A stretch of DNA of 64,000 nucleotides. It comes from Isoetes taiwanensis (Eukaryota > Streptophyta > Lycopodiopsida > Isoetales > Isoetaceae). Positions 19,811 through 44,232 of this stretch are shown here, in pieces; the first letter of the stretch is position 1, and every line of letters starts with the position of its first letter. Made by a program: the position numbers and the translations under genes. The notes under the pieces were generated by a model that saw only the letters and a program-made list of their open reading frames with translations, searched no databases and was not told the origin of the DNA. The DNA lies in the NCBI GenBank assembly GCA_021234155.1, contig JAJEKV010000327.1:62001-126000 (forward strand), in the 5' to 3' direction.

Positions 19811-19914
19811 CTACCCAACCAAGCAATGTAGTGTGGTGTGTGGTCACATGTCCAGTTGGATGCTGCCTAGTGGCGTGACGTTAAAACTACTAAAACTACT
19901 ATCTATCTATCTTA

Positions 19915-22300: not shown

Positions 22301-22319
22301 ATATTGTCAGATTATATGT

Positions 22320-23840
22320 AATTTTATTTTTGTTGATTTTTATAAAATTTTCAGTTTATCTTTATATAAGAAGTATGACAGATATAAAAATTTAAAACTA
22401 CTTTCTAGACTAACTATTACTTTAATCTATTTAAATTTAAATTTTTTATCTAAAATAAACTTTATCTGATTAAAATGTTATTTTTCTAAAATGTAAGTTT
22501 AGATGAAATGAATCAAATGATTGCATTTAAGTTTTAATTATAAAAATTGAACAACTTATTTTTAATTAATTTTATCAATAATAAACTATTCAATAATTAC
22601 TATTAAAATATAAACTTCTATCTTTAAAACAAAACTTCTATCTTTTAAAGAATTTTGAACTAACAGTTTTTTAAAGAATTTTCAAAGTTCTAAGAGTTTG
22701 TAAATTGTGAAATTCTCTCATATAGTTTCAAGTCAATCACTAATCAAACCATCATATTTCATTTACAAATTATCCTGATTCACAAATTTTAAATTTGTTA
22801 AGAAATCACTAAAAATTAACATTTTATATTCTTGAAATGTTTAATTCTAAATAGATTCGCATGAAAATTAGTATAGAAAGCAATTTTATGCCTTTATAAC
22901 AAGTATTCTTTAAATTTAAAGATAAAGTTATATAATTAGAACATATAAAAATTATAAGAATCAAGAAGAATTAAACATGACATATAATTTTAAAATGTTA
23001 TTCCCGATTATTATATCTGAATAAGTCCAAGTTTTGTTGAATATGCCATTTGACCAAAATGTATTGAATGAATAGAATAGAATAGAATAGTTTTTTTAAC
23101 GTCCACGGAGACCAATAGGTCATGGGACCCATACAATGGGCTAGTACAATCATTACTACTAGGATTAAAAACCCCACCGAAGGTTTTCAAGGGAAAACCT
23201 TTGGCAAAAGAATGATGATACTAGACAAGCTTAGATAATGACTACTGAGGGCTCAGTAATTGCAGACGTTTATCTAGAACCTCAAGTATATAAAATGCCA
23301 AGTCATGCACAGATGGTGCGCTGAGAAGTTGTGGAAGCGTAGAATGGAATGCTAAGATCCAGATCTTCCATCTTACCTCCCGCAGCAACAAGCTCCAATC
23401 TTAGAGCTTCCATTTTCTTCAAATATTCAGTCATATTTGAAAAAGTCGTCAGCAAAGTGCTCTCAATCTTTTTCTTGATGACAAGCTGAGTTAAGAGACC
23501 TGTGTAGGCATAAGAGTTCCCCAACTCTTTCCATGCTTCTATGAAACTAGATAACGAAATCCGAGCGATCTTTATAGAAGGGGATGCAAGGAGTTTAAGA
23601 TAGGTAGAGCTTTTTTATTTAACTTTCGTGGACATGGCATCTTCTGCCTTATCCCAAGGAGGATAAAAAACGGCTCCAAGATTGTTGGTGATCATAAAAT
23701 TCTCAAAGAAGTCTGCCCAAACATGCCAATTGCTTGGTGTGAGTGTGGGATCTTTGGAAAACTTGAAAGGATCCATGAGATTCAAATTGGTATAGCTGAA
23801 TCTAGAAGAAAGGAACGGAAATATTCTTCAAACTCGCTTC
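22320..23840 (-). mobile_element. Copia-type unit, minus orientation (AT tract, gag and leader)
   Basis: The AT-rich tract is reverse-complementary to 20119-20815 over 22330-23052. Gag follows on the - strand from the ATG at 23776 (MDPFKF) down to about 23353, with LVIKKKIESTLLTTFSNMTE readable. The leader reaches 23840, where a 16-kb element is inserted; the leader, PBS and LTR resume at 44233-44671. Repeat S copy 2 interrupts gag. Confidence 0.8.
23071..23206 (+). repeat. Dispersed repeat S, copy 2
   Basis: Same landmarks as copy 1, including the GAATA run and the terminal hairpin, with differences only at a CG-containing spot (CCCCACCGAAGG against CCCCTGCCTCGAAAGG). It is followed by about 145 bp of unassigned DNA before gag sequence resumes at about 23352, so the insertion may be longer than the shared part. 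Confidence 0.75.
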
Positions 23841-25411
23841 TGTGACGGCCCCAGCTCATATACGATGCCCCGATCGTATACAAACTGGACATCATCCTCT
23901 AACCAAAGATTCGCCACGACATGAGGCCGTCCACCTAACATCGGGCCCTTGATGGTGGCCAAGAACCCGACGGGGAAGAATGGACGTGTCATTCATCCCG
24001 TCTCCCTCGGGATCGACCTAGCTGCGGAAGCGTAAACAAAACATGAGCACATGACATCAATCAACAATAACATACCCACCTCGAAGGGTGGTCCACCATA
24101 TCCGCGTAGCTGCAACAACATATCCCGACATCAACATAACATGGGAAATCCTACCCGTGCCTGGACTCATGGGGAAAGGCGACGACTTGGGGTCTCCGTG
24201 TAGCAATGCGCATGTAATTCATGGCAAATGGATTTGGCATGGCATAGGAACATGGTCGTTGGGTAGTCCACTCCATCCGCCCCTCACATTGCATACTTTG
24301 GATATAGGGTGAAAAGTATTGGAGCTTTGACGTAGCTGCCGGGTGAATAGCCGAGGGGGGGCTACTACTACCGGGTTGCATCTCCCCAGCCCCGATGAGG
24401 CGGGAGGAGATCACTCTCCTCCGAAGGTTCATGCTAATCCGCGGGCGAGCTAGAGAGCCACTTTGCTCAGATACGACTTGAACTCACCGGAAGATGACGA
24501 TCACCTCACGAGTGTCGAGCCCATACCCCGCCTCACGCGGTGCGGGGTGGTATTAGGCCTAGCTCACGCGGCGTTCCCGCCGTCGTTACGCCCGGCCAGG
24601 ATCAACCGTGATTAGACAAGCCCTCCCTTGTCGGCCGGCCTAGCTCGCCACCCACGGCCCCAAAGGGCGGTTTATGCATGTGCCGCATTAATTGGGAATT
24701 AATGGGCTAAAACTAGGATCATACAACTACTTGGGCTCGGGTCTCTACCCCCTTCCCAATACACAAGAGTGGCGCATAGAATGTCAAAACATCATCACAA
24801 TGTAACTGAAAATAATAGAATACATCTATTCTAATCTACCTAATCATACATGGTTAGGTTCCTTTGTTAGTGTCTATCATTCTTAGGGTCAGGGGGGGCG
24901 ATATAGCTAAGAATGGATGCTAAACCCTCTTGAAAGAGGCCTGATAACTTCGGATCTACCTATTGAATCAACCACCCACCCGCATCTTGGCTGGCTCCCA
25001 CTCCTCCAAAGCGCCCATGCTGCCGATCTCGAAGTCCGCTAATCTTGGATCGAAAGCCGCTTTGGGAGATCCGACTTCTATGCTCGATTCAGCGGAAATG
25101 CATCCTCTGCTGCTCCAACCCAGGGACTCGTGGGCTGAGAACCTAAAAGGGTTTCCTTTTAGGGTTTATGCCCCTTTATCCCCACGAATTTAGGGCTGAT
25201 CCCTTTTGGTCAATGGGTCATTGCCACGTGGCAAAAAGGGATTATATTCACATGTTGCTTTAACATGTGCAATATAATGGTTCACAAGGTCGTACCCTAG
25301 GGTACTACCTTTTACGGTCGTCGTGTACATGTCGTCTGAGTCGACATGTACTAGTGACGGTCGATTATAATATACGATTCATACCGCGTATGTTATCTTT
25401 GGAACGTCACA
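23841..25411 (-). repeat. LTR A (3' LTR of the 16-kb element)
   Basis: 1571 bp, TGTGACG to CGTCACA. AT-rich parts are identical to LTRs B and C over long stretches; the CG-rich first 900 bp differ by many short indels. It directly follows the copia leader bases ACTCGCTTC. Confidence 0.85.
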
Positions 25412-25424
25412 TTCTCCCCACCTT
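25412..25424 (-). other. Polypurine tract
   Basis: Minus strand reads AAGGTGGGGAGAA immediately before the LTR start TGTGACG, the expected position of a plus-strand primer. The same tract (one G shorter) abuts LTR B at 39911-39922. Confidence 0.7.
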
Positions 25425-28400
25425 GAATTGATGCTGTCCGCAGCAAGGAGTCTCCCCACCTTGGGCTCTTCCTGTCCTGCAACCACTTGATGCATACAAT
25501 TTATTACTATTATACTTATATTTTTATTAAGATTACCTTAAGGCAATATTTTTAAATCATTATTACGCCATTACATTATCAAATAACTTGTCAAATCGTA
25601 ACTTCTATTAAAACAAGGTACTTATTAGTTTCTGTTATCACAACATTTAATTTATCACAATTTAACACTTTCATATACAATTATTATTTAAGGTATTCTT
25701 CATTCCTTGCAACACATTCCAACAAAATTTGTGTTGCAAGTCTTCGCACCTTAAAATCCTGTATTAATTTTACAATATCTATAATTACACACTTACTATC
25801 TTAATTATTTATAATTACTCTAAGGTGATGTTTAAGACCTTACTGTACTATTTTATTATCCAATTAACTTATGACTTCATAACTTAATCCACGCAAGGTA
25901 ATTATTGCCCTTACTTAATACAATATTTAAGTTTATCAAAGTTTATCAATTTCATACAAAATTTACACTTCTAAGGTACTCTTCATCCCTTGCAACACAT
26001 TATAACAAAATTTGTGTTGCAAGTCTTCGTCTTCGACCTCCTAAGCCCTCCGGGGCTCTATTGGCCATGGTCGTCACTACGTTATAACCATTTTAATTAT
26101 TAATAAAATTTTGGTTATATGGTGACCACCCACCTATCTACATGGATGCATGGCTAATCTCCGGCGTAGGAAGAGGGTGAATCTTCCATTATGGCTGGTG
26201 GAGGCGGCGCCTATATGCCTATATGCGCTCATGCCTACACCCTAGTTGCCCGGTGGAGGATAGGTCCTTCCAGGTATATATATGAAGGCCGATTCACCCT
26301 ATCAAAGCATATATGGGGCTAGAGGTGCTTTTCCTATCAATGCATTCTGAATGACCTCCTTTCTCTCGAGGTCGTCTACCTCGGGAGTGGGAGCGTAGAC
26401 TTTCTAATCTACCTTCCACTCACCCAAGCGGAAACGCGGTCATGCCTACATTGACATTACACCACGCCCTAGAGATCACCGTAGTAATCTCATCATCGGT
26501 AGCAATGCATGCAACCCTTACCTCATAGGTTGCATGCGTAGATTATACTTAACTACACATGAAATTAATCTAAACACAAATCGACATGCCTGAGCCGATT
26601 TTTGCTGGCTCCCTTTAATGCATGCGATTAACATACTTACTCTAAGGTAATATTTATGAATTAACATTATCATAGTATCGGATACATTACTTCCGATAGT
26701 ACAATTATATTTACTCTAAGCTTTACAATATTTAATTACTTTTAGGTCGCGATTATTTAAACAGTAACCCTGATTTAGACCTATTGTTACATAGACAAGG
26801 TTTTAATTATCATACACAAGAATTAGATGTGCTTCTTATTCTCTTCCTTGGGTCCTGCATTACCCTTGGAAGTATATCCCTAAGATGAACTCTGAATTCT
26901 ATTTTCTATTTATATTTATAAGGACCCGAGGTTATATAGCTATCCTTGGAAGGAATTGCTACCTCACATGCTACCTCACATTACCGTTGTTATTTAACTT
27001 ATTTCCGTATGATACATATACGTACAACAATTTCTATGCAGTTATTAGGATCTATATTTAACTTATCTATAAGACACATTAAAGCTTATAATACATGCGC
27101 ACACCTTACCTAAGGCTAGAACATCCCGCCCATTGAGTGGCATTGAGTAATTTGGAGATGACTTGGTCGTTGCATTGCTCCCATAGTTTTGCTCCACTTC
27201 ATTGGTGTAGTTAGCTACCACGCCGGGTCTCAAGACGTTGAAGGCCTCCCCGAGCCTAAGGTATCTATCTATTTTACGCTCTATTCGGCCCGCCATTGCG
27301 GAGTGAACTCTATTCTACGGGTCAATTCGATGCAAAATGCGTTCAATCTCGAGATTGAGCCTCCCACTTTCTTCAAAAAGAAAATGGTCCGCACCCCTTC
27401 AATGGCGTTGTACACAACGTCATATTTATTCTCTCCCCTTAAGAGGTTATACGCTTCTTATTTAGCGATTAATTTACTAGCCTTAGTCGACATATATAAC
27501 CATCTAAGATGGATATACATATTATGTTATCATTTATTTCAAATGGGTTACCTACTTAGTTAGAACGATTCTAAACCACAAGGTTTTGTCATCATGACAA
27601 TTCCTTTTGTCTCAAAAGACTATTTGATTACTATAATTCTTATTTTAGATGTACCTTTACATGTATTATTCTTTTTTATATTCTAGAGATCCCCTTTCTT
27701 AGTTATTTAGCTCTTGGAATATTCCTACCAATCAATTGATGTCATCGTAACAAGTTGGCGGACTTGTTAGATTACTTCTTTTCTTTCGGTTGGATTATTC
27801 TTTTGGAGGTACTAGATTTATACATGGTCAACAATTATCCTAGTAATGATTCCTTCTTAGCGAGGTGATCAATCTCACCAAGTGATTTCAATACGTTAGA
27901 TGTCTATTAACAATCGTGTATAATTTTAGTTACTCCTATGCATTTCCTTCCCAATCTTGATGCTTAGCTCAATATTGGGGCTGATCCTTTCAATGAGAAT
28001 ATCCGGAAATGCCTTCTAATCCCAATATGGATGTTATCATCACCCACTAGGCCCCCTGGCCTTAAATGCTTGAGCTTGCTAGAAGCTCATCCACTCGTTG
28101 CCTGCTTGAATTAGCAAGGTAACGTTCTTCCGAGTCGCTCGATACTTCAGTCTCCTTGGCGGTGGATCCTCTTGATGTAGAGGTTGACTTTGTTCGTTTA
28201 GAAGCCTCTCCTTCTTTGGTCTTTGATGGTGTAGTTGGTCACTTGAAATCTTCCATGCCGCTTTTCAAAAGCCCGAAGGTGGCGCCAGTTGAAAAAAAGA
28301 TCTTTCATCTTGAACTCTTTGTCTTGGCGGCTAAAGGGCGACTCTATATCCGATATTGTTTTTCGACTCCATCGATGTCTCATACATCGAGTCCTCTTGT

Positions 28401-29504
28401 CGTTATCGCGTTCAAGAGTGTTGAAGATGTTGATTGCTTCACCCCGCAATTTGCCCCGACATCTCTTCGTTTGATTTGTTACGCTATGGGAGGGAAGAAA
28501 TAACAAGGGAACTATACATGCAAAGCATATAGCTTACATAATTACAATTACTAATAGAGCTATTAAGTCCCCTTGTGCCTCCGTCGAAGTTGCACACCTA
28601 CTCCTTGGTAATGTCATCGGTGTTCCTCGGTGGCATGGTGTTGACGATCTATATCCTCCTATTTGTACGTCAGCTCGTACTCCGGGGTAACTTGTTGATA
28701 TACTTGGGCCCTCCGATGTTTGTCGGCTATGGCACAACACACTTTGCATCACATTCTAACTAAAGGTGTGCTGGTCGTTGATGCTTCGACATTTCTGTCT
28801 GCCTCCTGATTCTGTTCTCGGGCTGTAATTGTTTCACCCTTCATGATACTTGAAGCTATTTGGAGGCGTCTCTTGAGGCTGTGCGCGCTTCCTTTGGCTA
28901 TCACAAGGCCCCCAAAATTGAATCAGTATGATTTTTTTGAAATGATTTATTAGTGAAAACCAAATCTTAAAATCATTACCGGTATGTGGGCCAAAAAGTT
29001 TACAAACCATATCTGGTTATACATTATAGTTCATCACTACAATTCCACGACGTGATAAAAGATCGTTGTTTTTTGATATGGTAGTAGAACATGATAGTTA
29101 TAGTTAGTCTTCATAACAACTTAAAATATATGATGTGCATTATTGCTTAATATGTCTAGTTTAATAGAATGATTATTAATCCCATCTATCTTTCTTAGCA
29201 TATACACATGGTAATTTTAAGTGTTTATGTTACGATAAATGTAATTGGTTTAGGTTTGCTAGTATGAGTTTATAGTGATTAATTGTAACAACAATATATG
29301 ATAATTATAGTTGGTTTAGATTTGCTAGTATGACTTTTTTTGCATGATACCAAATGGTTAACCACTGCAATATTACCAAATAGTTCACCACTGTAATTTT
29401 ACAACCTAATTTTGAGCATATGATATTTAATAGTGTTGTATGGGAAGGTGAACATGTGGGAGTTGAACCCACAATTTTACCATATGTTTCACAATAAAAT
29501 TAGA

Positions 29505-32121
29505 TCAGATATAGTCATGTGATATGTTTCTAACGAGCCAGACACCTAAAAGGTCGGATGCTTCATAATGCAAATAGAGAGGATCTTCCAGGACTGGTGG
29601 CCGTGCCATTAGACGGAATGCTGAAATTCTCAAATTAGCCTGCATTCTAGAAGTGGAGCCTTTATTAACTTCATCTTTGTCTACCTTTGAGCTTGTTAAA
29701 TGTTTAGAACCATGGGTATGATGTTTCTTTGCCCGGCTTTTACTAGGGCCAACTGAACATGCATTCCTGGTAGATTGAGCAGAGTGATTGTCGTATTCTG
29801 CTGCGGAAGGCAATAAACGTGCCTCCCATCCACATAGGCCAATAACCTTTTGTGCCTGCAAATCAATAGGAATAACTTAATGTCATTTATAAATACACCA
29901 AGACAATAGAGTTTTAAGATAATAGCTAGATTAAAAAGTATTTCATAAACAGCATCTACAAGGATAAAGATGCAGACCTTGTAAAATGCACGATATGATA
30001 GAGGCATTGAACTTTCACAAGCAAATTCTTCTCCTGTTATCATGCGAGATGGATGTTGCGAAAGAAGGCGTTCAATCTGTGGACCCCTTGACAGCTTCAT
30101 CTGGTCAAACAACTGGCAAAAAAGCAATCTGCAGAAGGGCATCGCACCGATCATTATAAGCACCAATCAGAGCTGATGGTAGAGAGGATAGAAAGTATCC
30201 TATAGATTCTGAACGTGTATTTCCTCTCCATGGACAAAGTCTTTGATTGCCCCCGTGTCAAGCTTCTCCCTGAATGCTTCAGCAGCTATCAACTATACCA
30301 CAAGGGGTAAAAAGAAAATGAGTCTGTCTGACCAGCTAATTTTATTACACTTTTCAGCCAGATAATAGAATTAAGTGCCTTCTACAGCGAGACATATTAT
30401 TCACAAAGCTCATATTACAGACATGGAGAATCAAGATGGAATTTATTATGAGGAAAACGAACCCTCATTTTGTGACCAAGATTTTGACGTATCCTCGTCT
30501 AGCACAAGCTAGTGGACCAATAATCTGCCACAGGAAGAGTTTTAGACGCCAGGTTTTTTAGAAGCATAATCATTCCTAAAAGGAATGAGGAATTTAGAAG
30601 CCAGGTTGCTTAGAAGCATGAAAACAAAGGAGCATTACCTAGTGTAATATGCAAGAAAGCCACTTGGCCCTGATAACCCCAGCAATAACCCTGGAAAAAG
30701 ACAGGTTAGGATCATACAGAAGATGAATAAACTGTTGAAGACAATAAAAATAGCTTGCAGAGTCAAAACCTGCCTGCTCTAACAAATTGAAATAGATAAG
30801 TAGTAAGGAATACCCATGCAATCATGGAAGCATTGAAGCAAAGAAGCATTACCTAGTGTAATATGCAAGAAAGCCACTTCGCCCTGAACTCCAGCAATAA
30901 GCCTGGAAAAAGACAGGTTAGGATCATACAGAAAATGAATAAACTGTTGAAGACAATAAAAATATCTTCCAGAGTCAAAACTGGCCTGCACTAACAAATC
31001 GAAATAGATAAGTAGTAAGGAATAGCCATGCAATCATGCCTAAGAACATCAACTAGGATCTAACCTTGAAATCTAATGCAACCTAGCATGATGCCTCCAA
31101 TGCTTCCAGCTACAAAATGGTACTATCTTCTTAAAGCTCTAGGCACAGAAAATCAAGACTCCTTGGCATAAAATACATGATTCTGTAACTTTCTTGTTGT
31201 TTCTCCACTACACAAACTGAACACAATAAAGCAAAAGACAAAATGTTTCACAAGATTTTTCTTCCGGCTCTTTTTCTAGAAATATTAAACTGACAAAGAG
31301 AACATGGAGAACTTGCAGCAGTTCCAAAGGAACTAAAAAGAAATTCTAAAATATATGTATTTACAATGCCCTTGCCGAGCAACAGAATGCTTGTGCACCA
31401 TCTACCTTTCTCATAAAACCTTTCTTTGTCTATAAGTCTTTGTGCTTGCAACTTACAAAATGCATGGATCAGGAAGGCAAGTACTTGCTAGCATAATGCT
31501 GTGCAGTTATTGCATAAAAGGACGACACCTTTATCATATCTTCTGAAAAAAGCTTCTCTGAGCGCAACATTCCAGCATGATTAACAGCTTCTAGGACCTG
31601 CAAAAATCAACGAGAAAAATCAGTGTCTTTAAACCTCTAAATAATTTGGCAATGTTAATGGCATGAAAGTAACCTGTGTTTCCTCTAGCTCTTGTTTAGT
31701 TAATTGCATATCACTGGTCAGCTTTTAACAATGGCATTCAATCTTGCAACAACCTGACAAGTTTATATAACTATCTGACAAGTCTATATAACTCAGGTGA
31801 AGCTGAACCATTCATAACAAAATGCCCATCAACTTTGGGGAATAACTTGAACCATGATCTTGCAACTGAATCCGACACATTCTCCATCATTAGATGACTA
31901 ATAACTGACAACATATTTCTAGCTGATAGTATGGAAGTGGATTTAAGGAATTTGCTTGGCAGATCAGAGCAAGCAATCTCCACAGCTTCTGGCAGGCAGG
32001 CATCTAGGAGAAGGGCCTTTGACTCTTTGACTCTTCTTAGCCTATGGCAGGCATCTAGGAAAAGGGCCTTTGACTCTTTGACTCTTCTTAGCCTTTGTTT
32101 CTTTGTGGCTATGGCTGTCAT
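29505..32121 (-). pseudogene. Multi-exon gene fragment, family unrecognised
   Basis: Minus-strand coding-like blocks in order: 32065-31771 (LLLDACLPEAVEIACSDLPS, then VARSWFKLFPKVDGHFVMN); 31600-31470 after a GCAG acceptor (VLEAVNHAGMLRSEKLFSED, then FYAITAQHYASKYLP); a short exon LIAGVQGEVAFLHITLG at about 30900-30850 with GT donor; AAEAFREKLDTGAIKDFVHG near 30290-30240; LFDQMKLSRGPQIERLLSQH then ACESSMPLSYRAFYK (30110-29977, GT donor); and a last exon 29861-29505 with KVIGLCGWEARLLPSAAEYD and a Lys/Ser-rich middle. Introns have plant-like borders. A helical, ARM/HEAT-like nuclear protein is possible but I cannot name it. The first block carries an internal duplication (RRVKESKAL..LDAC twice). 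It sits just left of a CACTA terminus, so it may have been captured by that transposon. Confidence 0.5.
30631..31040. repeat. 213-bp tandem duplication including an exon
   Basis: 30631-30843 and 30844-31040 are about 93-95% alike by eye, both starting AGCATTACCTAGTG and running through GCCTGGAAAAAGACAGG, ACAATAAAAATA and AAATAGATAAGTAGTAAGG. The duplicated part includes the short exon read on the - strand as VAFLHITLG. Seen directly. Confidence 0.9.
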
Positions 32122-32670
32122 GCAGATTTATGTTTAATAAGAAAACAAAGATGTGATCCGTGTCCTAAGTTAGCATGCCTATCATCTATTAATAGCTGCA
32201 AAAGGTAGCATTTACAGAAATCCGAAGAAAGCATATAGAACCCAAAGATCGGCTTTAAAAAAAGCTCAGAGATAATTTAACCAGGAGATTACCATAAATA
32301 TCTAGCATGATTGGGCAAAGGATCCAATTTTTTTTAATGCTCCTGGAGTACAGAAATTTACAAACAGGGACCAGCATTTGCTGCAATGGCATGCAAACCT
32401 ATTCTGCAATGGCATGCAAACCTATTCTGCAATGGCCACAAATGCATGCTAACCTGTTGATCTTGGGCTCCACAGCAGCAATGACCAGCAGCTCGATCAC
32501 GAAGGTAGGCGCTCGATCGATCACGCAGCTGCGTCACGAAGGTAAAGGCGGCAAAGAAGAAACCCGCGAACCCTTAGTGAAATTTTTTTTGCTTAGCCCA
32601 AAAACCCTAACAATTTTTTCCACGGACGCTAACAATTTTTTAACACTTTTTTAGAAAAATTCTAATTTCC

Positions 32671-33016
32671 TGACGAAATTCCTGACGTTTTTCTTGACGA
32701 TAATGGTGACGTTATACATGACGGAAAAGCTGATGATAAAGTTGACGAATAAACTGACGGTATATTCTGACGATAACCTTTTTTTTGCTGACGGTTATCT
32801 TGACGAACAAAATCTGACGCATATTCTGACGCTATATTTGACGCATGTACTGATGTGTGCTTTGACGATTACGCTGACGATTATTCTGACGCGACATCGC
32901 CATATTAAGCGTCAGGCTATTTACCATCAGCATATTCGTCAGCTTAAACGTCATGCTAAGTTTTTTTAGATTTTCTGACGATTGTTCTGACGGGTAACCC
33001 TCATTCTCTTGTAGTG
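32671..33016. mobile_element. Terminus of a second CACTA transposon with 12-bp TGACG subterminal array
   Basis: The right end reads ATTCTCTTGTAGTG (33003-33016), the reverse complement of CACTACAAGAGAAT, which is also the left TIR of the CACTA element at 45242. Inside it lie 18 TGACG motifs on the + strand (plus two TGATG), mostly exactly 12 bp apart, and three inverted CGTCA plus one CATCA also mostly at 12 bp. CACTA elements are known to carry short subterminal repeats bound by their transposase accessory protein. The matching left end was not found, so the extent is unknown; it may reach past the gene fragments at 29.5-32.1 kb. Confidence 0.75.
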
Positions 33017-33029
33017 TGGTCGCTAAGTC

Positions 33030-36000
33030 CCAAGGTATGCTGGTCAAAATTTCAATAATCCTTTCTAGTTTAATGTTGGAGAATTACTATCTAGTCAATC
33101 GTACCAACCTTAAGAGTGTTGAATGAGATGGCAAAGTCTAACAAATATTTCATTGCTTCAATCTTTTGACGAAGAAACGACTATGGGTCTATTCTCATCC
33201 ATCGACAAAACTATAAATAATGTGACGTATCTACATGCCACAATCCATACTTATCACCATTCATTGACACCCAAATTACATACTACAGAGAGATGGTAAA
33301 CTAAAGTTCTTGTCTATTAAGATCTTCTAATGTTTTTGAAGATTGCAACACCTGAAGAATTAGGTATAGTAGTTGGAATGACTAGTTAATATGGAAAATT
33401 ATGCTCACGATCAATAGTGACTCAAGGATTGGAACAAGTATATAATAAAAGCAACAAAATAAACCAGATCAAAATGGACTATAGAATAAGCAAGTAGCAA
33501 AAGCATAGCATATTTGCAAAATCAAATGCGATCTTTGAACTAAATTCAACGCATTAGAACTATCTTACAAAACCATATAGGTTATTGACAATTTGCATTA
33601 GAAATCATCCTATATTACAGTATTAAAAATGCACGCTAGAAAAACACCTCCCAACTAGTGATGATTTCAAGAAACTAGTATAAGAGATAGAATTAGTATC
33701 AAAAATATGATGCAAACTAGTAATGATTCACAAAACCATGGAGAATATATGGTTTTTGATGAGATTACAATTTATGAGTATGGAAAATCACATTTATACT
33801 AGTTCTCATGGTGATTATTTATGCGTGCTCTTTTTTGGGGGCCTTGTGTATACTCCTCTGGAGTTGTTCTCTTCCCTTGGGTTCACCAAGTTGCATGCAA
33901 GTCCGCGTGCAAGTCATCGGCTCGCCTCGCCTTGCCTCACCTAGTTGGTTCTCCATCGAGCTTCCAATCTTCCTTGCTGATCCCCTCGATCACCTGGCTT
34001 GGACGTTGTCACGTTCCTCAGTGCTATGCCGTCTTCTTGTCTTGAGGTACCCTCTGGTGGTTTTGATTGTGCCCGTCAGTTTTGATCCTCCTGTTGCCTC
34101 TAGGAAGCTCTTGGAAGAAGTCGGTTGCTAACACTTCTCCAGCTTTCAGTTCCTGACCTTTGTGCCTCTATGCATGTCGGTCTCTCTGTCAAGTAAAGCT
34201 TCATGGCTCTCCTCCCTGCTGGCTATATTGTCGGGGTGATGGATCCTTATATTTGCGCAGCTTGACCCTTGAGTTGAAGAAGTACCTGCCTTAGATATAG
34301 TCTTGTCGTTAAATAGCCTGGCTATTATCTTGAACTCTCTTTTTGCCGAAGGTGCTTCAGTTGATATCCTTGTCGTTAAGGTGTCGAGTGCTTCTACCGT
34401 GGGCGTTTGATGTCCCTCATGTCGGAGATACGATCGGCTTCTTTTCTTCTAATTACTGGTAGGAGTACCTGACGAAGCCATCACCTAGTTGTTGAAGGCA
34501 TATCTCCTCGTCGCAGTGCCTTTCGTAAGTGCCTCTCCATCTAATACACGTGTCATAGCGCATCACCCTATATTACCACAAGGTGGAATTATGGTCGTCG
34601 AGATGTTGCCTTCTTAGTTGGCTCGTTGATGTCGGGTCGTTCCTCCTTCGATTGTTGAGGCCACTCGTGGTCGTAAGTTCATCAAGTCTTGCCGCCGCGC
34701 CACAAGAGGTAGTGTTAAGGCCCCTCATTTGGTAGTCGGTGAAGGAGCTTTCGATCTGGCTAAATCCGTAAAGCATGACTTTAAACTCATGTTTCTCCAC
34801 TATATCTGTGGAGCACCCGAGATATACAATAGACATATACGCATTTACATTGGGATTTTAATTCATCCACTTTTTAAAACAACTACTTAAGATCTACTTA
34901 AATGTTTACACTCCTTTAGGGTTTCCCCTCCTCCTATCGCGTTTGATCCTTGGTTTTGCTACATCTTCTTCGTTCGTTGACTCCGGGATTCCTTGAGATG
35001 TTGCTACTATTTTTGAGCTTCATGTCTGATCCGAGCTCGTCACCCCAAGTTGCGAAGAGTGTTCGTCGATGTGATCCCTTGAAAAAGATGCTCCTCCTTA
35101 ATGTGTATGTCCGTCGTAAGGAATGCGGTGACCGCTCAACGCCCCTCAGATACGATGTCTCGTTGCAAGGTTGCCGATGTGCGGTGCCATTGATCGGTTG
35201 ATCACCCGGCCATTGCCGATCGGACGTTCTTGAATGTCTTCAAGCTCGAGATCGTGGTGGAGGCGTGCATTGTCATTCCTCCGTAGGTTGAATTCCGAGA
35301 GCCCCGTTGATTGGGCTTTGCTTCATTCCGAGGTGCCTCTCCTGCTTCAAGTGTGGTCATCTCCATTGCACCTACCCTAGCTTCTTACCGTTGCCTTTGC
35401 ATGATTTGTACCTGTTGGCTAGGTCGTCTCCTCCGTCCCTTGGATCCTATCCATTCGAGTCTCGCACTCCTTGGCTGACGTAGTAAAGTCGTCCTTCCGT
35501 TGCTTTCTAGGTGTTTCTGGGTCCGGAATTCTTGTTTGAGCGGAATATTCTCCTCCTTGATCTTGCCCCTAATGCTGATATAGGCCTTCAAGTCGGAGAT
35601 GTTCCCTGATATGCGTCTCCTCCCCCTCATGGTCTCCTACCTTTTGGAACCGATGAAAGTTCTCCTGCTGGTGCAAGGGAGCTGGAAAGCTCGTCTGGGT
35701 CAGCCTTAGGTGATTTGTGGTTGCCTAGCTTGGTTGCTCCTTTTGTTGACGTTGCATGACATTCGCTTGAGCTTTTTGGACTGCAAGGTCGTGGGTTGTC
35801 TTCCTCCGGTTTCTATACGCTCTGTGTCGCCATGACTTCTCTCCTCGATGGAAGATTATGCCCTCTGGCCCTAGCTCGTGATGCTAATGTGGCATTGCTG
35901 TCTAACGTCTTCCCTGCACTGTATTTTGCTGCCTTGCATTCTTCCATTTGAAACTCGTGCGCCGAGCCGAGGTGAAGGCGTCGAGATCCTCTTTTCGATG

Positions 36001-36900
36001 TGAGCTCGTGGGCGTGGTAGCCGGGAGGTTGACATCTAGAAGATTCTTGATGCCGTTGGTTACCAATTATTCTTCCCATTTGATGAAGATTGATGATAGG
36101 CGGTGGTGTCTGTTCTACTCGTTTGTCGGTTGAGGTGTTTGTCGTTGTGCTTTCCTCTCTTGGATTTGCCTTTTCGGTCTCCTCTCCTTATCTATCTGTA
36201 CATCGGCTGGGACCTTGATGTCTTCAAGAAGTTGCGCTTCTAGCTCTTCTGTGGCTCTGGCCCTGTACCTCGAAAGCAACACTCGTATATTCTAGAGTCT
36301 AAGGGTCCACTTGAAGGGCTCTCCTACAATATTTTGGGCTCTATAAGCAAGCAAGATGGCTCGGCAAACATTCTTGGAGACATGTCTATAATCTCCAAGT
36401 CTATGGACATTAGGACGTGTGGTATGGTATGACGTGAGGGTTGTTTTTCAAACCTCCATGATGTTTGAGGCATACTCTAAGGTCCTAGCAAAGTTGGTTT
36501 GGGGGAGCCCAATCTCTACACATGGAGTGACTTGGGCAGCTCTAGACTCTAGCTCCTTTCTAGGTATCCTGGCAATAGGGAGTGTCAATGTGGCGGTTGT
36601 ATAGGTCAAACTCTATTAGAAGGACACAAAATTAGGTCAAGGTTTATGCCTTTGGCATGAGCAGAGGTGATGTACCAACAGTTGGACTTGGGTTGCTATG
36701 CTGAGGTCTAGATGACTATAACAAAGGGGTGTTCTTGGGCACTTCTATCTAGGAGTAAGGCATCAGCTTTGAGCCGAGGCAATACTTGTGAGGTACTACT
36801 GGGGTATGCTTCTATTTACAAACAAACCACAGTTTGGAAAAACAATTCAAGGGTTTGAGCAATTTTGGTCATTTTGAGCTGGGGTTTGACATTTCTAACC
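33030..36900. other. Internal region of the 16-kb element, no intact gene
   Basis: 33030-33800 is AT-rich without ORFs. 33830-36300 is GC-richer with many short open frames on both strands; the - strand ones are Arg/Lys/Ser/Gln-rich (for example LASRARARGHNLPSRREVM at 35813-36079 and ADPDELSSSLAPAGELS further on in another frame), which would suit a gag or nucleic-acid-binding linker. No catalytic motif could be seen. 36300-36900 holds nothing recognised. Confidence 0.4.
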
Positions 36901-37010
36901 TATTTTGAGGTCATAAATGGATTCTAGGCTGTCTAACGGTCCTATTGCAACAAATTTCAGGTGATTTGGAGCTCTGTAGCTCAAGTTATGGGGTTTGAAA
37001 AATCGGACGC

Positions 37011-38103
37011 CTCTAAGAGTGCGCGAGAAGGGTGTTAGGTTGGGACCTAAGTGGCCTCTGGCGCACTCTTGGAGTCATTGGCCTATCTCTGTCTAATGGA
37101 TGCCAAGAATCCACTGGGAGGGGTAAATTCCTATTAGTTTTCTTCCTAAATGCAAGTTTCTTTGTTTATTACTACGTTTGGAGCAAGTAGGGCTAATCAA
37201 GGCCCCAGTTGGCTGGATGACTCTAAGAGTGCGCGAGGAGGGGGTTAGGTTGGGACCTAACTATGCTCTGGCGCACTCTTGGAGTCGTTGGCCAAAATAT
37301 CGCATTTGCTCCAGATCTAATACTGTACCTAATGAATACACATTTTTAAACAACTATATATCTTTATTATTCGAAATTTTCATACATCACATATAAACCT
37401 GTTAGTTACAAAAAGCAGTTTGTGTTCTATTTATCTGTCCTCTTGATGTACTTCGCCAGTCTCATGTCTTTCGGTATCTTTTGCGTGGAGCATGCACGCC
37501 AATGAGTCTTCAAGTGTTGCACGACCTCCATCTCTGCCTTGCTTAATTTCTTGGTTTGTTGATAAAATCCTCCATATCTCGAATTGAAGCTAGGTCTTCT
37601 TCAACTATTTTCTCTCGAACCCCTCTAAAGGAGGGTGTTAGGTCCAGACCTAACTATGCCCTGGCGCACCCTTAGAGGTGTTGTCCCTTTCCGCTCTAAA
37701 CTTATCCAATTTACACAATTTAACATGCGTTTCCCACTAATTTAATCATTCTAAACAAGATTCTATTATTACCTTTACCATTTGAGTAAGTTATGATCAA
37801 TTTTTGAGGTCACTTTTAGGGATGACTCTAAGAGTCTTGAGGGAGGGGGTTAGGTCGGGGCCTAACTATACTCTCAAGCACTCTTGGAGGCATTGTTCCA
37901 AAAGTGACTTGTACTTAATGTTTTTCGATGTTTTAACATATAATTCTAGCTATTTTGAGCTTTTTGATTGGGATTTCATCTTTTATTTTATCATTTGGAC
38001 TTCCTAAGGCCAAGTTCTAGGGTTCATATGGGGTGACTACTCTAAGAGTGCGCGAGAGACCCCTTAGGTCTAAACCTAACATGCTCCTGGCGCACTCTTG
38101 GAG
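37011..38103. repeat. Five hairpin repeats of about 64 bp, spaced near 205 bp or its double
   Basis: Copies at 37011-37074, 37221-37284, 37621-37678, 37826-37889 and 38040-38103. The typical copy is CTCTAAGAGTGCGC, a purine-rich spacer, GTTAGGT, a 3-4 nt loop, ACCTAAC, spacer, GCGCACTCTTGGAG, so outer and inner stems both pair. Copy 4 replaces GCGC by CTTGAG on one arm and by CTCAAG on the other; copy 3 uses GGGTG and CACCC. Start-to-start distances are 210, 400, 205 and 214 bp. The array lies between the PBS (38354) and the gag-like region of the 16-kb element, that is, in its 5' leader on the - strand. Structure seen; RNA role inferred. Confidence 0.9.
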
Positions 38104-38337
38104 GCATTGGCCAAAAGTGCTTGAAATTTAGTAGGCTCTCTTTAAGTGCTTTTAAATCGGTTTGTTCTATCTTACCTATGTTGTCTAATTATCCTAATCC
38201 TAGATAATTACTAACTCTACCAGGGAGAAAAAAAATTTCCCGCTACTTTCGAGGTTTGTGCTTGGGCTTTTACCTCCAAGACTGAATGTCGAGATGAGTT
38301 AGTTCCTATAGGGTTTCGGTCGGTCTTTCGATCCTGG

Positions 38338-38354
38338 TGCGCCCATCGATACCA
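38338..38354 (-). other. Primer binding site of the 16-kb element
   Basis: Minus strand reads A then TGGTATCGATGGGCGCA directly after the LTR end CGTCACA at 38356. The first seven bases match the iMet-type PBS TGGTATC; the rest diverge from TGGTATCAGAGC, so the primer tRNA is uncertain. Confidence 0.6.
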
Positions 38355-38355
38355 T

Positions 38356-39910
38356 TGTGACGACCCGAGCTCATATCACGATGCCCCGTCGTTATACAAA
38401 CCGGAGATCATCCCTCTAACCCAACATCGCTCCGCCGACATGAGGCCGTCCACCTAACATCGGGCCCTTGATGGTGGCCAAGAACCCGACGGGAAGAATG
38501 GGCGTGTCATTCATCCCTCCCACCGGGATCGACCTAGGCTGAAGCGTAAACAAAACATGAGCACATGACATCAATCAACAATAACATACCCACCTCGAAG
38601 GGTGGTCCACCATATCACATGGCTGCAACAACACATCGGTACATCAACATAACATGGGAAATCCTACCCGGGAGGGGCTCGGACTCATGGGGAAAGACCG
38701 ACTGGCTTTGGGGTCTCCGTAGCAATGAGGCAGAATTCATGGCAAATGGATTTGGGGCATAGGAACATGGTCGATTGGGTAGTCCACTCCATCCGCCCTC
38801 CCGGGTGCATACTTTGGATAGGCTGAAAAGTATTGGAGCCCACCCATTAGCCTGTTGGGTGAATAGCCGAGGGGCTACTACTCACCGGGTTGCATCTCCC
38901 CGGTCCCGATGAGGCAGGAGGAGATCACTCTCCTCCGAAGGTTCATGCTAATCACGGGCGAGCTAGAGAGCCACTTTGCCAGATATACGACTTGAACTCA
39001 CCGGAAGATGACGCATCATCTCGCAGTGTCGAGCCCATACCACGCCCTCACGCAGTGCAGGGTATTAGGCCACAACTCACGGCGTTCGGCCGTCGTTACG
39101 GCGCCCGGCCGGATCAACCGTGATTAGACAAGCCCTCCCTTGTCGCCCGGTCTAGCTCAGCCACCCACCCGGCGGGCTCTTATGCGAGCCGCATTGGTGG
39201 GAATTAATGGGCTAAAACTAGGATCATACAACTACTTGGGCTCACGGGTCTCTACCCCCTTCCCAATACACAAGAGTGGTGCATAGAATGTCAAAACATC
39301 ATCACAAATGTAACTGAAAATAATAGAATACATCTATTCTAATCTACCTAATCATACATGGTTAGGTTCCTTTGTTAGTGTCTATCATTCTTAGGTGTAG
39401 GGGTGCGCATATAGCTAAGAATGGATGCTAAACCTCTTGAAAGAGGCACGATAACTCGGATCTACCTATTGAATCAACCACCCACCCGCATCTTGGCTGG
39501 CTCCCACTCCTCCGAAAGCGTCCATTTGCTGATCTCGAAGTCCGCTAATCTTGGATCGAGCCGCAACACAGGAGATCCGACTTCTATGCTCCCGTTTCGG
39601 CGGAAATGCATCCTCTGCTGCTCCAAATGGAGACTCGGCTGAGAAAAGGGTTTCCCTTTTAGGGTTTATGCCCCTTTATCCCTAACCAATTTAGGGCTGA
39701 TCCCTTTTGGTCAATGGGTCATTGCCCGTGGCAAAAAGGGATTATATTCACATGTTGCTTTAACATGTGCAATATAATGGTTCACAAGGTCGTACCCTAG
39801 GGTACTACCTTTTACGGTCGTCGTGTACATGTCGTCTGAGTCGGCATGTACTAGTGACGATGTCGGTATAATATCGTATTCATACCGTATGTTATCTTTG
39901 GAGCGTCACA
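38356..39910 (-). repeat. LTR B (5' LTR of the 16-kb element)
   Basis: 1555 bp, TGTGACG to CGTCACA, co-linear with LTR A. The PBS flanks it on one side (38338-38354), and the other side carries a purine tract plus 2.7 kb of 3' internal sequence, so it is shared by two element copies in tandem. Confidence 0.85.
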
Positions 39911-42621
39911 TTCTCCCACCTTGAATTGATGGCGTCCGCGGCATCGGAGTCTCCACCTTGGGCTCTTCACGTCACGCAACCACTTGATGCATACAATTTA
40001 TTACTATTATATTTTTATTAAGATTACCTTAAGGCAATATTTTTAAATCATTATTACGCCATTACATTATCAAATAACTTGTCAAATCGTAACTTCTATT
40101 AAAACAAGGTACTTATTAGTTTCTGTTATCACAACATTTAATTTATCACAATTTAACACTTTCATATACAATTATTATTTAAGGTATTCTTCATTCCTTA
40201 CAACACATTCCAACAAAATTTGTGTTGCAAGTCTTCGCACCTTAAAATTCTATATTAATTTTACAATATCTATAATTACACACTTACTATCTTAATTATT
40301 TATAATTACTCTAAGGTGATGTTTAAGACCTTACTGTACTATTTTATTATCCAATTAACTTATGACTTCATAACTTAATCCACGCAAGGTAATTATTGCC
40401 CTTACTTAATACAATATTTAAGTTTATCAAAGTTTATCAATTTCATACAAAATTTACACTTCTAAGGTACTCTTCATCCCTTGCAACACATTATAACAAA
40501 ATTTGTGTTGCAAGTCTTCGTAGCTCGACCTCCTCGCCCTCCGGAGCGCTCTATTGGCCCGCAGGTCGTCACTACGTTATAACCATTTTAATTATTAATA
40601 AAATTTTGGTTATATGGTGACCACCCCACCTATCTACATGGATGCATGGCTAATCTCCCGGCGTAGGAAGAGGGTGAATCTTCCATTATGGCCGTGGAGG
40701 CAGCCTATATGCCTATATGCCGCTCATGCCTACACCCTAGTTGCCAGGCGTGGAGGATAGGTCCTTCCGTATATATGGGCGTGAAGGCCGATTCCTCCTA
40801 TCAAAGCATATATGGGGCTAGAGGTGCTTTTCCTATCAATGCATTCCTGAATGACCTCCTTTCTCGAGGTCGTCTACCTCGTGGTGGGCGGTAGACTTTC
40901 TAATCTACCTTCCACTCACCCAAAGCGGAGCGGCGGTCATGCCTACATTGACATTACACCACGCCCTAGAGATCACCGTAGTAATCTCATCATCGGTAGC
41001 AATGCATGCAGCCCCTTACCTCATAGGTTGCATGCGTAGATTCTCTTAACTACACATGAAATTAATCTAAACACAAATCGACATGCCCTGGATTTTTTTG
41101 GCTCCCCTTTAATGCATGCGATTAACATACTTACTCTAAGGTAATATTTATGAATTAACATTATCATAGTATCGGATACATTACTTCCGATAGTACAATT
41201 ATATTTACTCTAAGCTTTACAATATTTAATTACTTTTAGGTCGCGATTATTTAAACAGTAACCCTGATTTAGACCTATTGTTACATAGACAAGGTTTTAA
41301 TTATCATACACAAGAATTAGATGTGCTTCTTATTCTCTTCCTTGGGTCCTGCATTACCCTTGGAAGTATATCCCTAAGATGAACTCTGAATTCTATTTTC
41401 TATTTATATTTATGGACCCGAGGTTATATAGCTATCCTTGGAAGGAATTGCATCCTTGCGAAGGATTAATTAACATGCTACCTCACATTACCGTTGTTAT
41501 TTAACTTATTTCCGTATGATACATATACGTACAACAATTTCTATGCAGTTATTAGGATCTATATTTAACTTATCTATAAGACACATTAAAGCTTATAATA
41601 CATGCGCACACCTTACCTAAGGCTAGAACGCATCCGCCCATTGAGCTGGCATTGAGTAATTTGGAGATGACTTGGTCGTTGCATTGCTCCCATAGTTTTG
41701 CTCCACTTCATTGGTGTAGTTAGCTACTACGTCAGTCTCGCACGTTGAAGGCCTCCCGAGCCTAAGGTATCTATCTATTTTACGCTCTATTCGCTTCGGC
41801 CATTGCCGGAGTGAACTCTATTCTACGGGTCAGTCAATTCGATGCAAGTACGTTCAATCCTGAGATTGAGCCCTCCCACTTTCTTCGAAAAGAAAATGGT
41901 CCTGCACCCCTTCAATGGCGTTGTACACAACGTCATATTTATTCTCTCCCCTTAAGAGGTTATACGCTTCTTATTTAGCGCATTAATTTACTAGCCTTAG
42001 CTGACATATATAACCATCTAAGATGGATATACATATTATGTTATCATTTATTTCAAATGGGTTACCTACTTAGTTAGAACGATTCTAAACCACAAGGTTT
42101 TGTCATCATGACAATTCCTTTTGTCTCAAAAGACTATTTGATTACTATAATTCTTATTTTAGATGTACCTTACATGTATTATTCTTTTATATTCTAGAGA
42201 TCCCCCCTTTCTTAGTTATTTAGCTCTTGGAATATTCCTACCAATCGAATTGATGTCATCGTAACAAGTTGGCCGGACTTGTTAGATTACTTCTTTTCTT
42301 TCGGTTGGATTATTCTTTTGGAGGTACTAGATTTATACATGGTCAACAATTATCCTAGTAATGATTCCTTCTTAGCGAGGTGATCAATCTCACCAAGTGA
42401 TTTCAATACGTTGGATGTCTATTAACAATCGTGTATAATTTTAGTTACTCCTATGCATTTCCTTCCCAATCTTGATGCTTAGCTCAATATTGGGGCGATC
42501 CTTTCAGCGAGAATATCTGGAAATGCCTTCTAATCCCAATATGGATGTTATCATCACCCACTAGGCCCCCTGACCTTAAATGCTTGAGCTTGCTAGAAGC
42601 TCATCCACTCGTTGCCTGCTT
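39911..42621 (-). mobile_element. Second, partial copy of the 16-kb element's 3' internal region
   Basis: Co-linear with 25412-28108, including GGTTATATGGTGACCACC, the long AT tracts and CATCCACTCGTTGCCTGCTTG. It then stops abruptly and is joined to 29 bp of copia leader. Only CG-containing spots differ from the first copy; hundreds of AT-rich bases match exactly. No ORF of note. Confidence 0.85.
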
Positions 42622-42650
42622 GGAACGGAAATATTCTTCAAACTCGCTTC

Positions 42651-44232
42651 TGTGACGGCCCCAGCTCATATACGATGCCCCGATCGTATACAAACTAGAG
42701 ATCATCCCTCTAACCAGCATCTGCTCGCTGACATGAGGCCGTCCACCTAACATCGGGCCCTTGATGGTGGCCAAGAACCCGACGGGGAAGAATGGACGTG
42801 TCATTCATCCCGTCTCCCTCGGGATCGACCTAGCTGCGGAAGCGTAAACAAAACATGAGCACATGACATCAATCAACAATAACATACCCACCTCGAAGGG
42901 TGGTCCACCATATCACGATGAGCCGCGCAACAACACATCGGTACATCAACATAACATGGGGAAATCCTACCCGTGCTCGGACTCATGGGGAAAGGCCCGA
43001 CGGCTTGGGGTCTCCGTGTAGCAATGCGACCAGAATTCATGGCAAATGGATTTACTGGCATAGGGAACATGGTCGTTGGGTAGTCCACTCCATCCGCCCC
43101 TCCTGTGCATACTTTGCGGATAGGCTGAAAAAGTATTGGAGCCCCCCCAAGTAGCCTCTTTGGGTGAATAGCGGAGGGGCTACTACTCTTCGGGTTGCAT
43201 CTCCCGGTCCCGATGAGGCGGGGAGGAGATCTCTCCTCCGAAGGTTCATGCTAATCACAGGCGAGCTAGAGAGCCACCGCTCGTATACGACTTGAACTCT
43301 CTCCGGAAGATGACGCATCACCATTTAGTGTCGAGCCCATACCCCTCGCCCCTCCGCGCGGCCGGTATTAGGCCTAACTCCTGGCGTTCCCGGCCGCCGT
43401 TACGTGCCGGCCAGGATCAACCGTGATTAGACAAGCCCTCCCTTGTGACCCGGTCCTAAGCTCGCCACCCACGGCCGAGGCGGGCTCTTATGCCGGCATT
43501 AATTGGGAATTAATGGGCTAAAACTAGGATCATACAACTACTTGGGCTCGGGTCTCTACCCCCTTCCCAATACACAAGAGTGGCGATAGAATGTCAAAAC
43601 ATCATCACAATGAACTGAAAATAATAGAATACATCTATTCTAATCTACCTAATCATACATGGTTAGGTTCCTTTGTTAGTGTCTATCATTCTTAGGGTCG
43701 TAGGGGGTCGCCTATAGCTAAGAATGGATGCTAAACCCAATGAAAGAGGCCCTGATAACTCGGATCTACCTATTGAATCAACCACCCACCCGCAGATCTT
43801 GGCTGGCTCCCACTCCTCACGAAAGCGTCCATGTCTGCTGGGATCTCGAAGCCGCTAATCTTGGATCGAAATGCAAACTGGGAGATCCGACTTCTATGCT
43901 CCCGATTCGGTGTAAATGCATCCTCTGGCTGCTCTAATCCGAGACTCAGGGGCTGAGAACTGAAAAGGGTTTCCCTTTTAGGGTTTATGCCCCTTTATCC
44001 CCACGAATTTAGGGCTGATCCCTTTTGGTCAATGGGTCATTGCCACGTGGCAAAAAGGGATTATATTCACATGTTGCTTTAACATGTGCAATATAATGGT
44101 TCACAAGGTCGCCCTTAGGTACTACCTTTTATTTGCCGCCGATGTACATGTCGTCACGAGTCGACATGTACTAGTGACGTCTTCGATAATAATCGTATTC
44201 ATACAGGTATGTTATCTTTGGGCGATCCACGA
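42651..44232 (-). repeat. LTR C (third LTR, solo-like)
   Basis: Begins TGTGACGGCCCC, with the same 29-bp left flank as LTR A (42622-42650 equals 23812-23840). It ends near 44232 in a scrambled version of CGTCACA (CGATCCACGA), then CTTCAAGTCACAC, the other half of the split copia leader. Left flank ACTCGCTTC and right flank CTTCAA fit a 4-5 bp target duplication. It has the flanks of a solo LTR at the same target site. Confidence 0.8.

What the first reader, a model, noticed from the sequence alone, without database searches (positions are those of the whole stretch)
37011..38103. Five phased hairpins with compensatory arm changes in a retrotransposon leader
Five about 64-bp dyads at start-to-start distances of 210, 400, 205 and 214 bp each form an outer and an inner stem. 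In copy 4 GCGC/GCGC is replaced by CTTGAG/CTCAAG and in copy 3 by GGGTG/CACCC, so both arms changed together. Covariation between diverged copies suggests that pairing itself is selected or has been homogenised by a foldback mechanism. The location after the PBS of a 16-kb non-coding LTR element suggests a packaging, dimerisation, translation-bypass or small-RNA role. I know of no described family with this design.
Basis: partly seen in the sequence, partly recalled or inferred. Interest (0 to 1): 0.78.

Follow-up and report, generated by a model that had tools for sequence, protein, structure and literature searches.

The report
Palindrome array flanking retrotransposon histone gene
The five hairpins are a real, conserved control region of a jumping gene in a plant that is almost certainly the quillwort Isoetes taiwanensis; the claimed matched changes in their arms are probably sequencing errors, but full copies of this jumping gene carry their own histone H3 gene, kept intact by natural selection.

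Summary
Five ~79-nt hairpin repeats are really at 37005-38112. They follow the PBS of an LTR element (sense = minus strand) and recur in fixed slots in the 43 genomic copies I examined (192 hairpins). The compensatory-arm claim fails. Copy 3 lost part of one arm. Of 186 hairpins scored, 113 keep both GCGC arms, 57 changed one arm only, 16 both. In 37 low-error hairpins 15 of 25 pairs never vary. The same GC-to-AAG edit occurs outside hairpins in indel-rich copies, and the genome matches a nanopore assembly: probably mostly artefact.

The window copy is a non-autonomous derivative. Full copies are Ty3/gypsy chromoviruses with a ~393-aa ORF between hairpins 3 and 4: tail MARTKQTARK, long linker, H3 fold (PF00125, E=1.5e-21), fold dN/dS 0.05. 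A second family carries an H3 fold 87-88% identical to the host's, dN/dS 0.03. Stems are the best-conserved hairpin positions even in the lineage that lost the H3 ORF, so they act in cis; I favour protein-binding palindromes. The H3-bearing retrotransposons are the surprising part.

The parts
38356..42622 (-). 5' LTR of the element in sense orientation
   Evidence: window self-comparison, 92.6% identical to 23841-28108; sense end ...GTCACA just before the PBS
38336..38354 (-). decayed primer binding site (TGGTATCGATGGGC...); relatives read TGGTATCAGAGCTCTG (tRNA-iMet type, motif recalled)
37433..37537 (-). remnant of the H3-like ORF (residues 355-393 of the ORF in copy B, 55% identity)
   Evidence: tblastn E=2.7e-7
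28109..36930 (.). interior of the non-autonomous copy without match to the two full copies compared; 7 of its ORFs scanned, none reached a Pfam cut-off
23841..28108 (-). 3' LTR in sense orientation

Best explanation
Shown: the array is a cis-element of the leader and of the ORF1-ORF2 gap of a Ty3/gypsy chromovirus family. Order in full copies, sense strand: LTR, PBS, hairpins S1-S3, H3-like ORF1, hairpins S4-S5, ORF2, gag-pol, LTR. The window copy belongs to a derivative lineage that lost nearly all of ORF1 by what looks like one deletion and, in the window, has no recognisable coding left, yet keeps the LTRs and all five hairpin slots. Stem letters are nearly fixed, loops and spacers vary. 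Inferred: the stems are inverted half-sites read by sequence, most likely as palindromic DNA bound by a host transcription factor that drives transcription from the LTR and from putative internal TATA promoters before ORF1 and ORF2 (the inner stem GTTAGGT/ACCTAAC equals a plant MYB AC-III element, recalled). A role as RNA stem-loops in packaging remains the main rival. The paired arm change of copy 4 is most likely a context-dependent sequencing or assembly error, or decay, and not compensatory selection.
For: Fixed slots and phasing. Full copies: histone ORF, gag-pol and chromodomain. 17 of 17 short copies carry the window-type sequence after S5; of 14 full copies whose sequence after S5 I had, 12 are of the other type, L020 is window-type, L023 had no hit. 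16 of 17 short copies resume homology at the same place, positions 1273-1282 of the S3-S4 segment of copy B. Stems vary less than spacers and loops in 9 short and 9 full low-indel copies, also without S4, the slot by which many copies were found, although hairpins hold more CpG than spacers (58 against 18 per kb in copy B). 15 of 25 pairs never vary in 34 distinct hairpins. TATA-like CCCTATAAATTA at -110 to -113 from the H3 ATG in 8 of 8 copies checked; TATATATA 173-178 nt after S5 in 3 of 3.
Against: No expression, binding or methylation data. The TATA boxes and the MYB motif are pattern matches. The derivative deleted the putative H3 TATA box but kept its hairpins, so internal promoters alone cannot explain conservation. 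Spacer S1-S2 is as conserved as the stems (0.058). Some measures do exceed shuffles: cells paired 93.1% against 91.6% (0 of 500), two-sided cells 21 against 12.2 (1 of 500), covariation score 4 of 500, but pairs with two-sided change 272 of 500 and pair types 500 of 500; these lie in helix 2 and the outermost pairs. The window copy itself is not indel-rich (4.3 per kb), so the artefact reading is weakest for the very copy reported.
Confidence: 0.5

Rival explanations
1. The hairpins act as RNA stem-loops of the genomic RNA: packaging, dimerisation or reverse-transcription signals that the non-autonomous lineage must keep.
For: Place between PBS and first ORF; retained in the derivative lineage; stable minus-strand folds for four of five; A-U to G-U and G-C to G-U changes keep pairing in the sense RNA.
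Against: Loops, where Gag contacts would be expected, are the most variable part (0.290 against 0.047-0.057 in stems). The sense RNA keeps a C.A mismatch in the main stem, while the plus strand folds better. Core pairs are fixed and give no covariation.
Confidence: 0.33
2. True compensatory evolution of the arms.
For: Window copy 4 is exactly complementary; 5 hairpins pair a CTT-type 5' arm with an AAG-type 3' arm, Fisher p 0.027; helix 2 and the outer pairs hold two-sided changes.
Against: 47 hairpins changed only the 3' arm and 10 only the 5' arm; the edit recurs at non-hairpin sites such as GCAGCA to GCAAAGA; core stem pairs do not vary in low-error copies.
Confidence: 0.1
3. The hairpins are small foldback transposons (MITEs) inserted repeatedly.
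For: Palindromic units of one size.
Against: Each of the 43 copies examined holds at least two hairpins, in fixed slots at fixed spacing; no solitary hairpin in that sample.
Confidence: 0.03
4. Selfish homogenisation only: the hairpins are recently duplicated or gene-converted repeats without function.
For: Two of the copies have four leader hairpins (L035, L036); weak similarity between some spacers.
Against: Slots keep their own loop sequences in both lineages while stems stay fixed.
Confidence: 0.1

Closest known systems
Ty3/gypsy chromoviruses of plants (for example Tekay, CRM, Tcn1-like; names recalled)
   Same: gag, protease, RT, RNase H, integrase and a chromodomain in this order; PBS of tRNA-iMet type.
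   Different: Two further ORFs before gag: an H3-like histone and an unknown ORF2; five palindromes around the histone ORF. Not in the papers listed by my searches (listings only).
hAT DNA transposons of fungi that captured histone H3 (Pseudocercospora fijiensis and relatives, PMC6710886; Pyrenophora tritici-repentis H3L, PMC3538342; passages seen)
   Same: A transposable element that carries and amplifies an H3-like gene; 784 H3-like copies in P. fijiensis.
   Different: DNA transposon, fungi; in P. fijiensis all amplified copies are inactivated by RIP. Here an LTR retrotransposon of a plant, H3 fused to a long N-terminal part, fold under purifying selection, and two families.
Histone mRNA 3' stem-loop
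   Same: A hairpin downstream of a histone stop codon (S4 lies about 135 nt after it).
   Different: Much larger, five-fold, also upstream; no Rfam match to it.
Retroviral packaging/dimerisation stem-loops (recalled)
   Same: Stem-loops between PBS and first ORF.
   Different: Constraint lies on stem letters, not loops; repeated at 211-214 nt.

Membership tests
Ty3/gypsy chromovirus | gag-PR-RT-RNaseH-INT order | tested here: met
   L007 ORFs: PF03732, PF08284, PF00078 (5e-41), PF17917, PF00665 (1e-10); tested on full copy B, not in the window
Ty3/gypsy chromovirus | chromodomain at integrase end | tested here: met
   PF00385 E=1.8e-9 in L007:2161-2970:-
Ty3/gypsy chromovirus | reverse-transcriptase phylogeny placing it in a named clade | not tested
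   no reference set used
Histone H3 | histone fold, H3 type | tested here: met
   PF00125 E=1.5e-21 and 8.1e-41; best PDB hits are H3 chains, E 2.3e-19
Histone H3 | N-terminal tail ARTKQTARK | tested here: met
   family 1: exact in 16 of the 20 aligned copies, one-residue variants in L078, L084, L089, two in L091. Family 2: absent in the two full ORFs seen, which start MAITK
Histone H3 | 136-residue core histone incorporated into nucleosomes | tested here: not met
   family-1 ORF is about 390-400 aa with a long linker; incorporation not testable. Hence 'H3-like', not H3
Covarying structured RNA | compensatory changes in core stems beyond relatedness | tested here: not met
   15 of 25 pairs never vary; two-sided changes only in helix 2 and pairs 8/75, 9/74; covariation term -0.41 of -26.13 kcal/mol. 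Window copies 3 and 4 were not among the 37 rows
Known Rfam family | match above gathering score | tested here: not met
   two weak matches (U4 E 0.43, mir-298 E 0.97), both far below cut-off
Non-autonomous LTR element | LTRs and PBS kept, no own pol | tested here: met
   window: LTRs, decayed PBS, interior unmatched and no Pfam match above cut-off in 7 ORFs scanned

The most novel reading that the evidence does not exclude
A chromovirus lineage has made histone H3 its own first gene. Two families, with saturated synonymous divergence from the host gene, keep an H3 fold under strong constraint; in family 1 the tail ARTKQTARK, the substrate of H3K4/K9 writers and the kind of ligand a chromodomain reads (recalled), is kept as well, next to an integrase with a chromodomain. 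The protein would act as a decoy for or builder of the element's own chromatin, blunting H3K9-based silencing or steering integration, with the palindrome arrays controlling its production.
Probability: 0.4. Interest if true: 0.93.

Novelty: new variant of a known kind. Interest (0 to 1): 0.76.

Why it matters
Transposons are silenced through marks on histone H3. A retrotransposon that encodes a selected H3-like protein, in two families and in at least dozens of open copies, would make transposon-made histones directly testable as anti-silencing or targeting factors. The palindrome array, kept by a derivative lineage that lost the histone ORF, gives a clean cis-element to test. The case also warns that matched arm changes in nanopore assemblies of methylated repeats can mimic covariation.

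Tried and rejected
Compensatory covariation: rejected as a general property. Rfam: nothing. MITE origin: no solitary hairpin among 43 copies. Histone mRNA stem-loop: no match. AlphaFold2 of ORF2 (mean pLDDT 33.2, 12 sequences) and of family-2 ORF1 (38.6, 2 sequences): uninformative, no fold search made. Pfam, PDB for ORF2: nothing. Plasmid collection: no match. Family 2 has none of these hairpins (nhmmer E up to 1 in L051 and L052); L051 has two other palindromic 74-nt repeats before ORF1 but L052 none there at the same stringency. My first joining of copy A put one piece in the wrong orientation (carried into); corrected and no result for A or 57 is used except that gag-pol pieces align. One search held one wrongly placed row (L028), removed. 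The 37 rows leave out window copies 3 and 4, one gapped L012 row and the S4 rows of L012, L014, L025, L028. In one search, 4 of 20 fetched family-1 places (L073, L075, L090, L092) failed my motif filter and were left out. One search left out L001, L027, L020, L029 (39 of 43 copies counted); its 'outside' count includes plain substitutions, so 42 of 584 overstates the edit.

Selection of copies: 20 of the 40 places (found by slot S4), 18 loci from the roughly 100 places listed out of 1591 matches, plus L001-L004 and the window. Family-1 places for one search were chosen as open and high-scoring; one search repeats the test on 13 copies chosen by hairpin.

Full report
WHAT IS THERE. The window holds five 79-nt direct repeats, each a hairpin with a 13-bp main stem around a 6-7-bp inner stem, at 37005, 37215, 37608, 37820 and 38034. 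Four of five fold significantly better than shuffles on the minus strand; the one at 37608, which lost about 10 nt of an arm, does not. They lie next to an LTR (38356-42622; partner LTR 23841-28108, 92.6% identical), directly behind a decayed PBS.

WHICH GENOME. The window is G000:C28:62001-126000 of a genome of 1,658,258,908 bases in 1110 contigs. The Isoetes taiwanensis assembly (PMC8566536, passages seen) has 1658.30 Mb in 204 scaffolds and 909 unplaced contigs, from nanopore v9.4.1 flow cells with racon and pilon polishing. I take G000 to be that species; this is an inference. 'Histone' does not occur in that paper's main text.

COPIES. A pattern covering half the hairpin has 803 forward and 788 reverse matches in the genome and none for the reversed control. 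I read 43 copies (the window, L001, L004, L009-L046 and the joined copies A and B) and found 192 hairpins: S1 36, S2 40, S3 41, S4 40, S5 33 and two extra leader hairpins S0 (slots of L001, L027, L035, L040 and L044 set by hand, some loci end before all slots). Spacings are S1-S2 median 214, S2-S3 211, S4-S5 211, S3-S4 either about 390-411 (17 copies, one of them 282) or about 1416-1890 (21 copies).

THE HISTONE. The 1.6-kb gap of full copies is filled by an ORF on the sense strand. Copy B's ORF (L003:1716-3002:-) begins MARTKQTARKPKKDD, runs through a charged linker and ends in a histone fold: PF00125 E=1.5e-21, PDB H3 chains E 2.3e-19. A protein search gave 108 matches, 30 of them covering all 392 residues without a stop (105 of 32,880 loose candidates scored, so copy number is a rough lower bound). 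Behind it come S4, S5, an ORF2 and gag-pol with a chromodomain. Copies read by me are often broken: in the 13 copies, 7 have an in-frame stop and only B has no broken codon relative to itself; 4 of 23 copies listed have an ORF of full length ending in the normal C terminus.

SELECTION. On 20 open family-1 copies dN/dS is 0.056 for the fold (0.029-0.083), 0.110 for the tail, 0.179 for the linker. These copies were picked as open and high-scoring. On 13 copies picked by hairpins instead, it is 0.052 (0.022-0.097) for the fold, 0.053 for residues 1-30 and 0.164 for the linker. Both tail and fold are thus more constrained than the linker.

SECOND FAMILY. A search with canonical H3 gave 150 matches: 15 ordinary H3 genes at 96-98% identity and 135 at 71-86%, covering only about residues 25-135, mostly inside longer open frames. 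I read the surroundings of two (L051, L052): again PBS, ORF1 with a C-terminal H3 fold, ORF2, gag-pol. The fold of 22 such sequences has dN/dS 0.029 (0.011-0.049); four compared with the host's H3 are 87-88% identical, three of family 1 are 51-52%. Its ORF1 starts MAITK, without the ARTK tail. I did not check that all 135 places belong to this family.

THE WINDOW COPY. It is a derivative: 17 of 17 short copies have the window-type sequence after S5, and 16 of 17 resume homology to the H3 region at the same place, so most likely one deletion founded the lineage. A C-terminal H3 remnant is left at 37433-37537. In the window the rest of the interior has no match to copies A and B and no Pfam match above cut-off in the 7 ORFs scanned. 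For the other short copies I read at most 400 nt beyond S5, except L004, which matches the window over 3 kb.

THE ARMS. Of 186 hairpins with both arms scored, 113 are GCGC/GCGC, 47 changed only in the 3' arm, 10 only in the 5' arm, 16 in both. Changes in the two arms are associated (odds ratio 3.8, p 0.003), but they cluster in copies; the altered fraction falls with contig length (Spearman -0.43, p 0.004). Copies with altered hairpins are indel-rich elsewhere (17 copies at 14-42 per kb against 22 copies at 4-25, p 1e-6), and the same edit, GCA to AAGA, occurs outside hairpins, for example GCAGCA to GCAAAGA in the H3 ORF of L034, L036 and L037. With a nanopore assembly this points to context-dependent error, or to decay that ignores pairing. 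The window copy is not indel-rich (4.3 per kb), so for copy 4 itself a real change is not excluded. In 37 hairpins (34 distinct) from nine low-indel copies, the core pairs are fixed: 15 of 25 never vary. Two-sided changes occur in helix 2 and the two outermost pairs; some shuffle measures are exceeded (two-sided cells 1 of 500, score 4 of 500) and others not (272 and 500 of 500).

CONSERVATION. In 17 low-indel copies mean pairwise difference is 0.057 in the main stem, 0.047 in the inner stem, 0.290 in the loop, 0.144 in internal loops, and 0.178 in spacers, though spacer S1-S2 is only 0.058. The stem excess holds in nine short and nine full copies apart and without S4 (stems 0.036 and 0.025, spacers 0.078 and 0.083, p 0.001 and 1e-6). 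So the stems matter in cis, also where the H3 ORF is gone.

HOW IT MIGHT WORK. Fixed stem letters, free loops, no covariation in the core, and a conserved C.A mismatch in the sense RNA fit recognition of a palindrome by sequence better than recognition of an RNA shape. The inner stem equals a MYB AC-III element in inverted pairs (recalled). TATA-like boxes stand 110-113 nt before the H3 ATG in 8 of 8 copies checked and 173-178 nt after S5 in 3 of 3. I therefore favour transcriptional binding modules, at about even odds overall; RNA packaging elements are the main rival, and the loss of the H3 TATA box in the short lineage shows that internal promoters cannot be the whole story.

NOVELTY. Histone H3 captured by hAT DNA transposons is known in fungi (PMC3538342 and PMC6710886, passages). 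Five literature searches (listings only, of open-licence papers) showed no LTR retrotransposon with an H3 ORF. One search for leader hairpins of LTR retrotransposons (10 of 120 listed) showed no match to this design.

Noticed in passing
L051:5500-6660 (+), L052:3290-4351 (-), L093-L104: ORF2, about 466 aa and acidic in parts, intact in 11 of 12 fetched frames; no Pfam or PDB match; related ORF2 in family 1. It holds a motif like LPVI..GQEYLLLDDI twice.
   Followed up: partly
G000 small and large contigs, e.g. L037, L036, L022: Recurrent GC-to-AAG and one-base edits in some copies, the kind of error that can fake covariation or break ORFs.
   Followed up: partly
L035, L036: Four instead of three leader hairpins, 212-216 nt apart.
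   Followed up: no
L051:3377-3558: Two tandem 74-nt palindromic repeats of another sequence before ORF1 of family 2; not found in L052 at the same stringency.
   Followed up: partly
window 42623-44224: A third, partial LTR abuts the 5' LTR, and a 28-bp flank is shared with the other end of the element (23812-23840), suggesting a nested or recombined structure.
   Followed up: no
window 19910-23840 and 58582-60890: AT-rich repeats present several times in both orientations; unrelated to the finding.
   Followed up: no
L002, L003, L001 after hairpin S5: AACCCTAA (telo-box-like, recalled) just before TATA-like boxes upstream of ORF1 and ORF2.
   Followed up: partly
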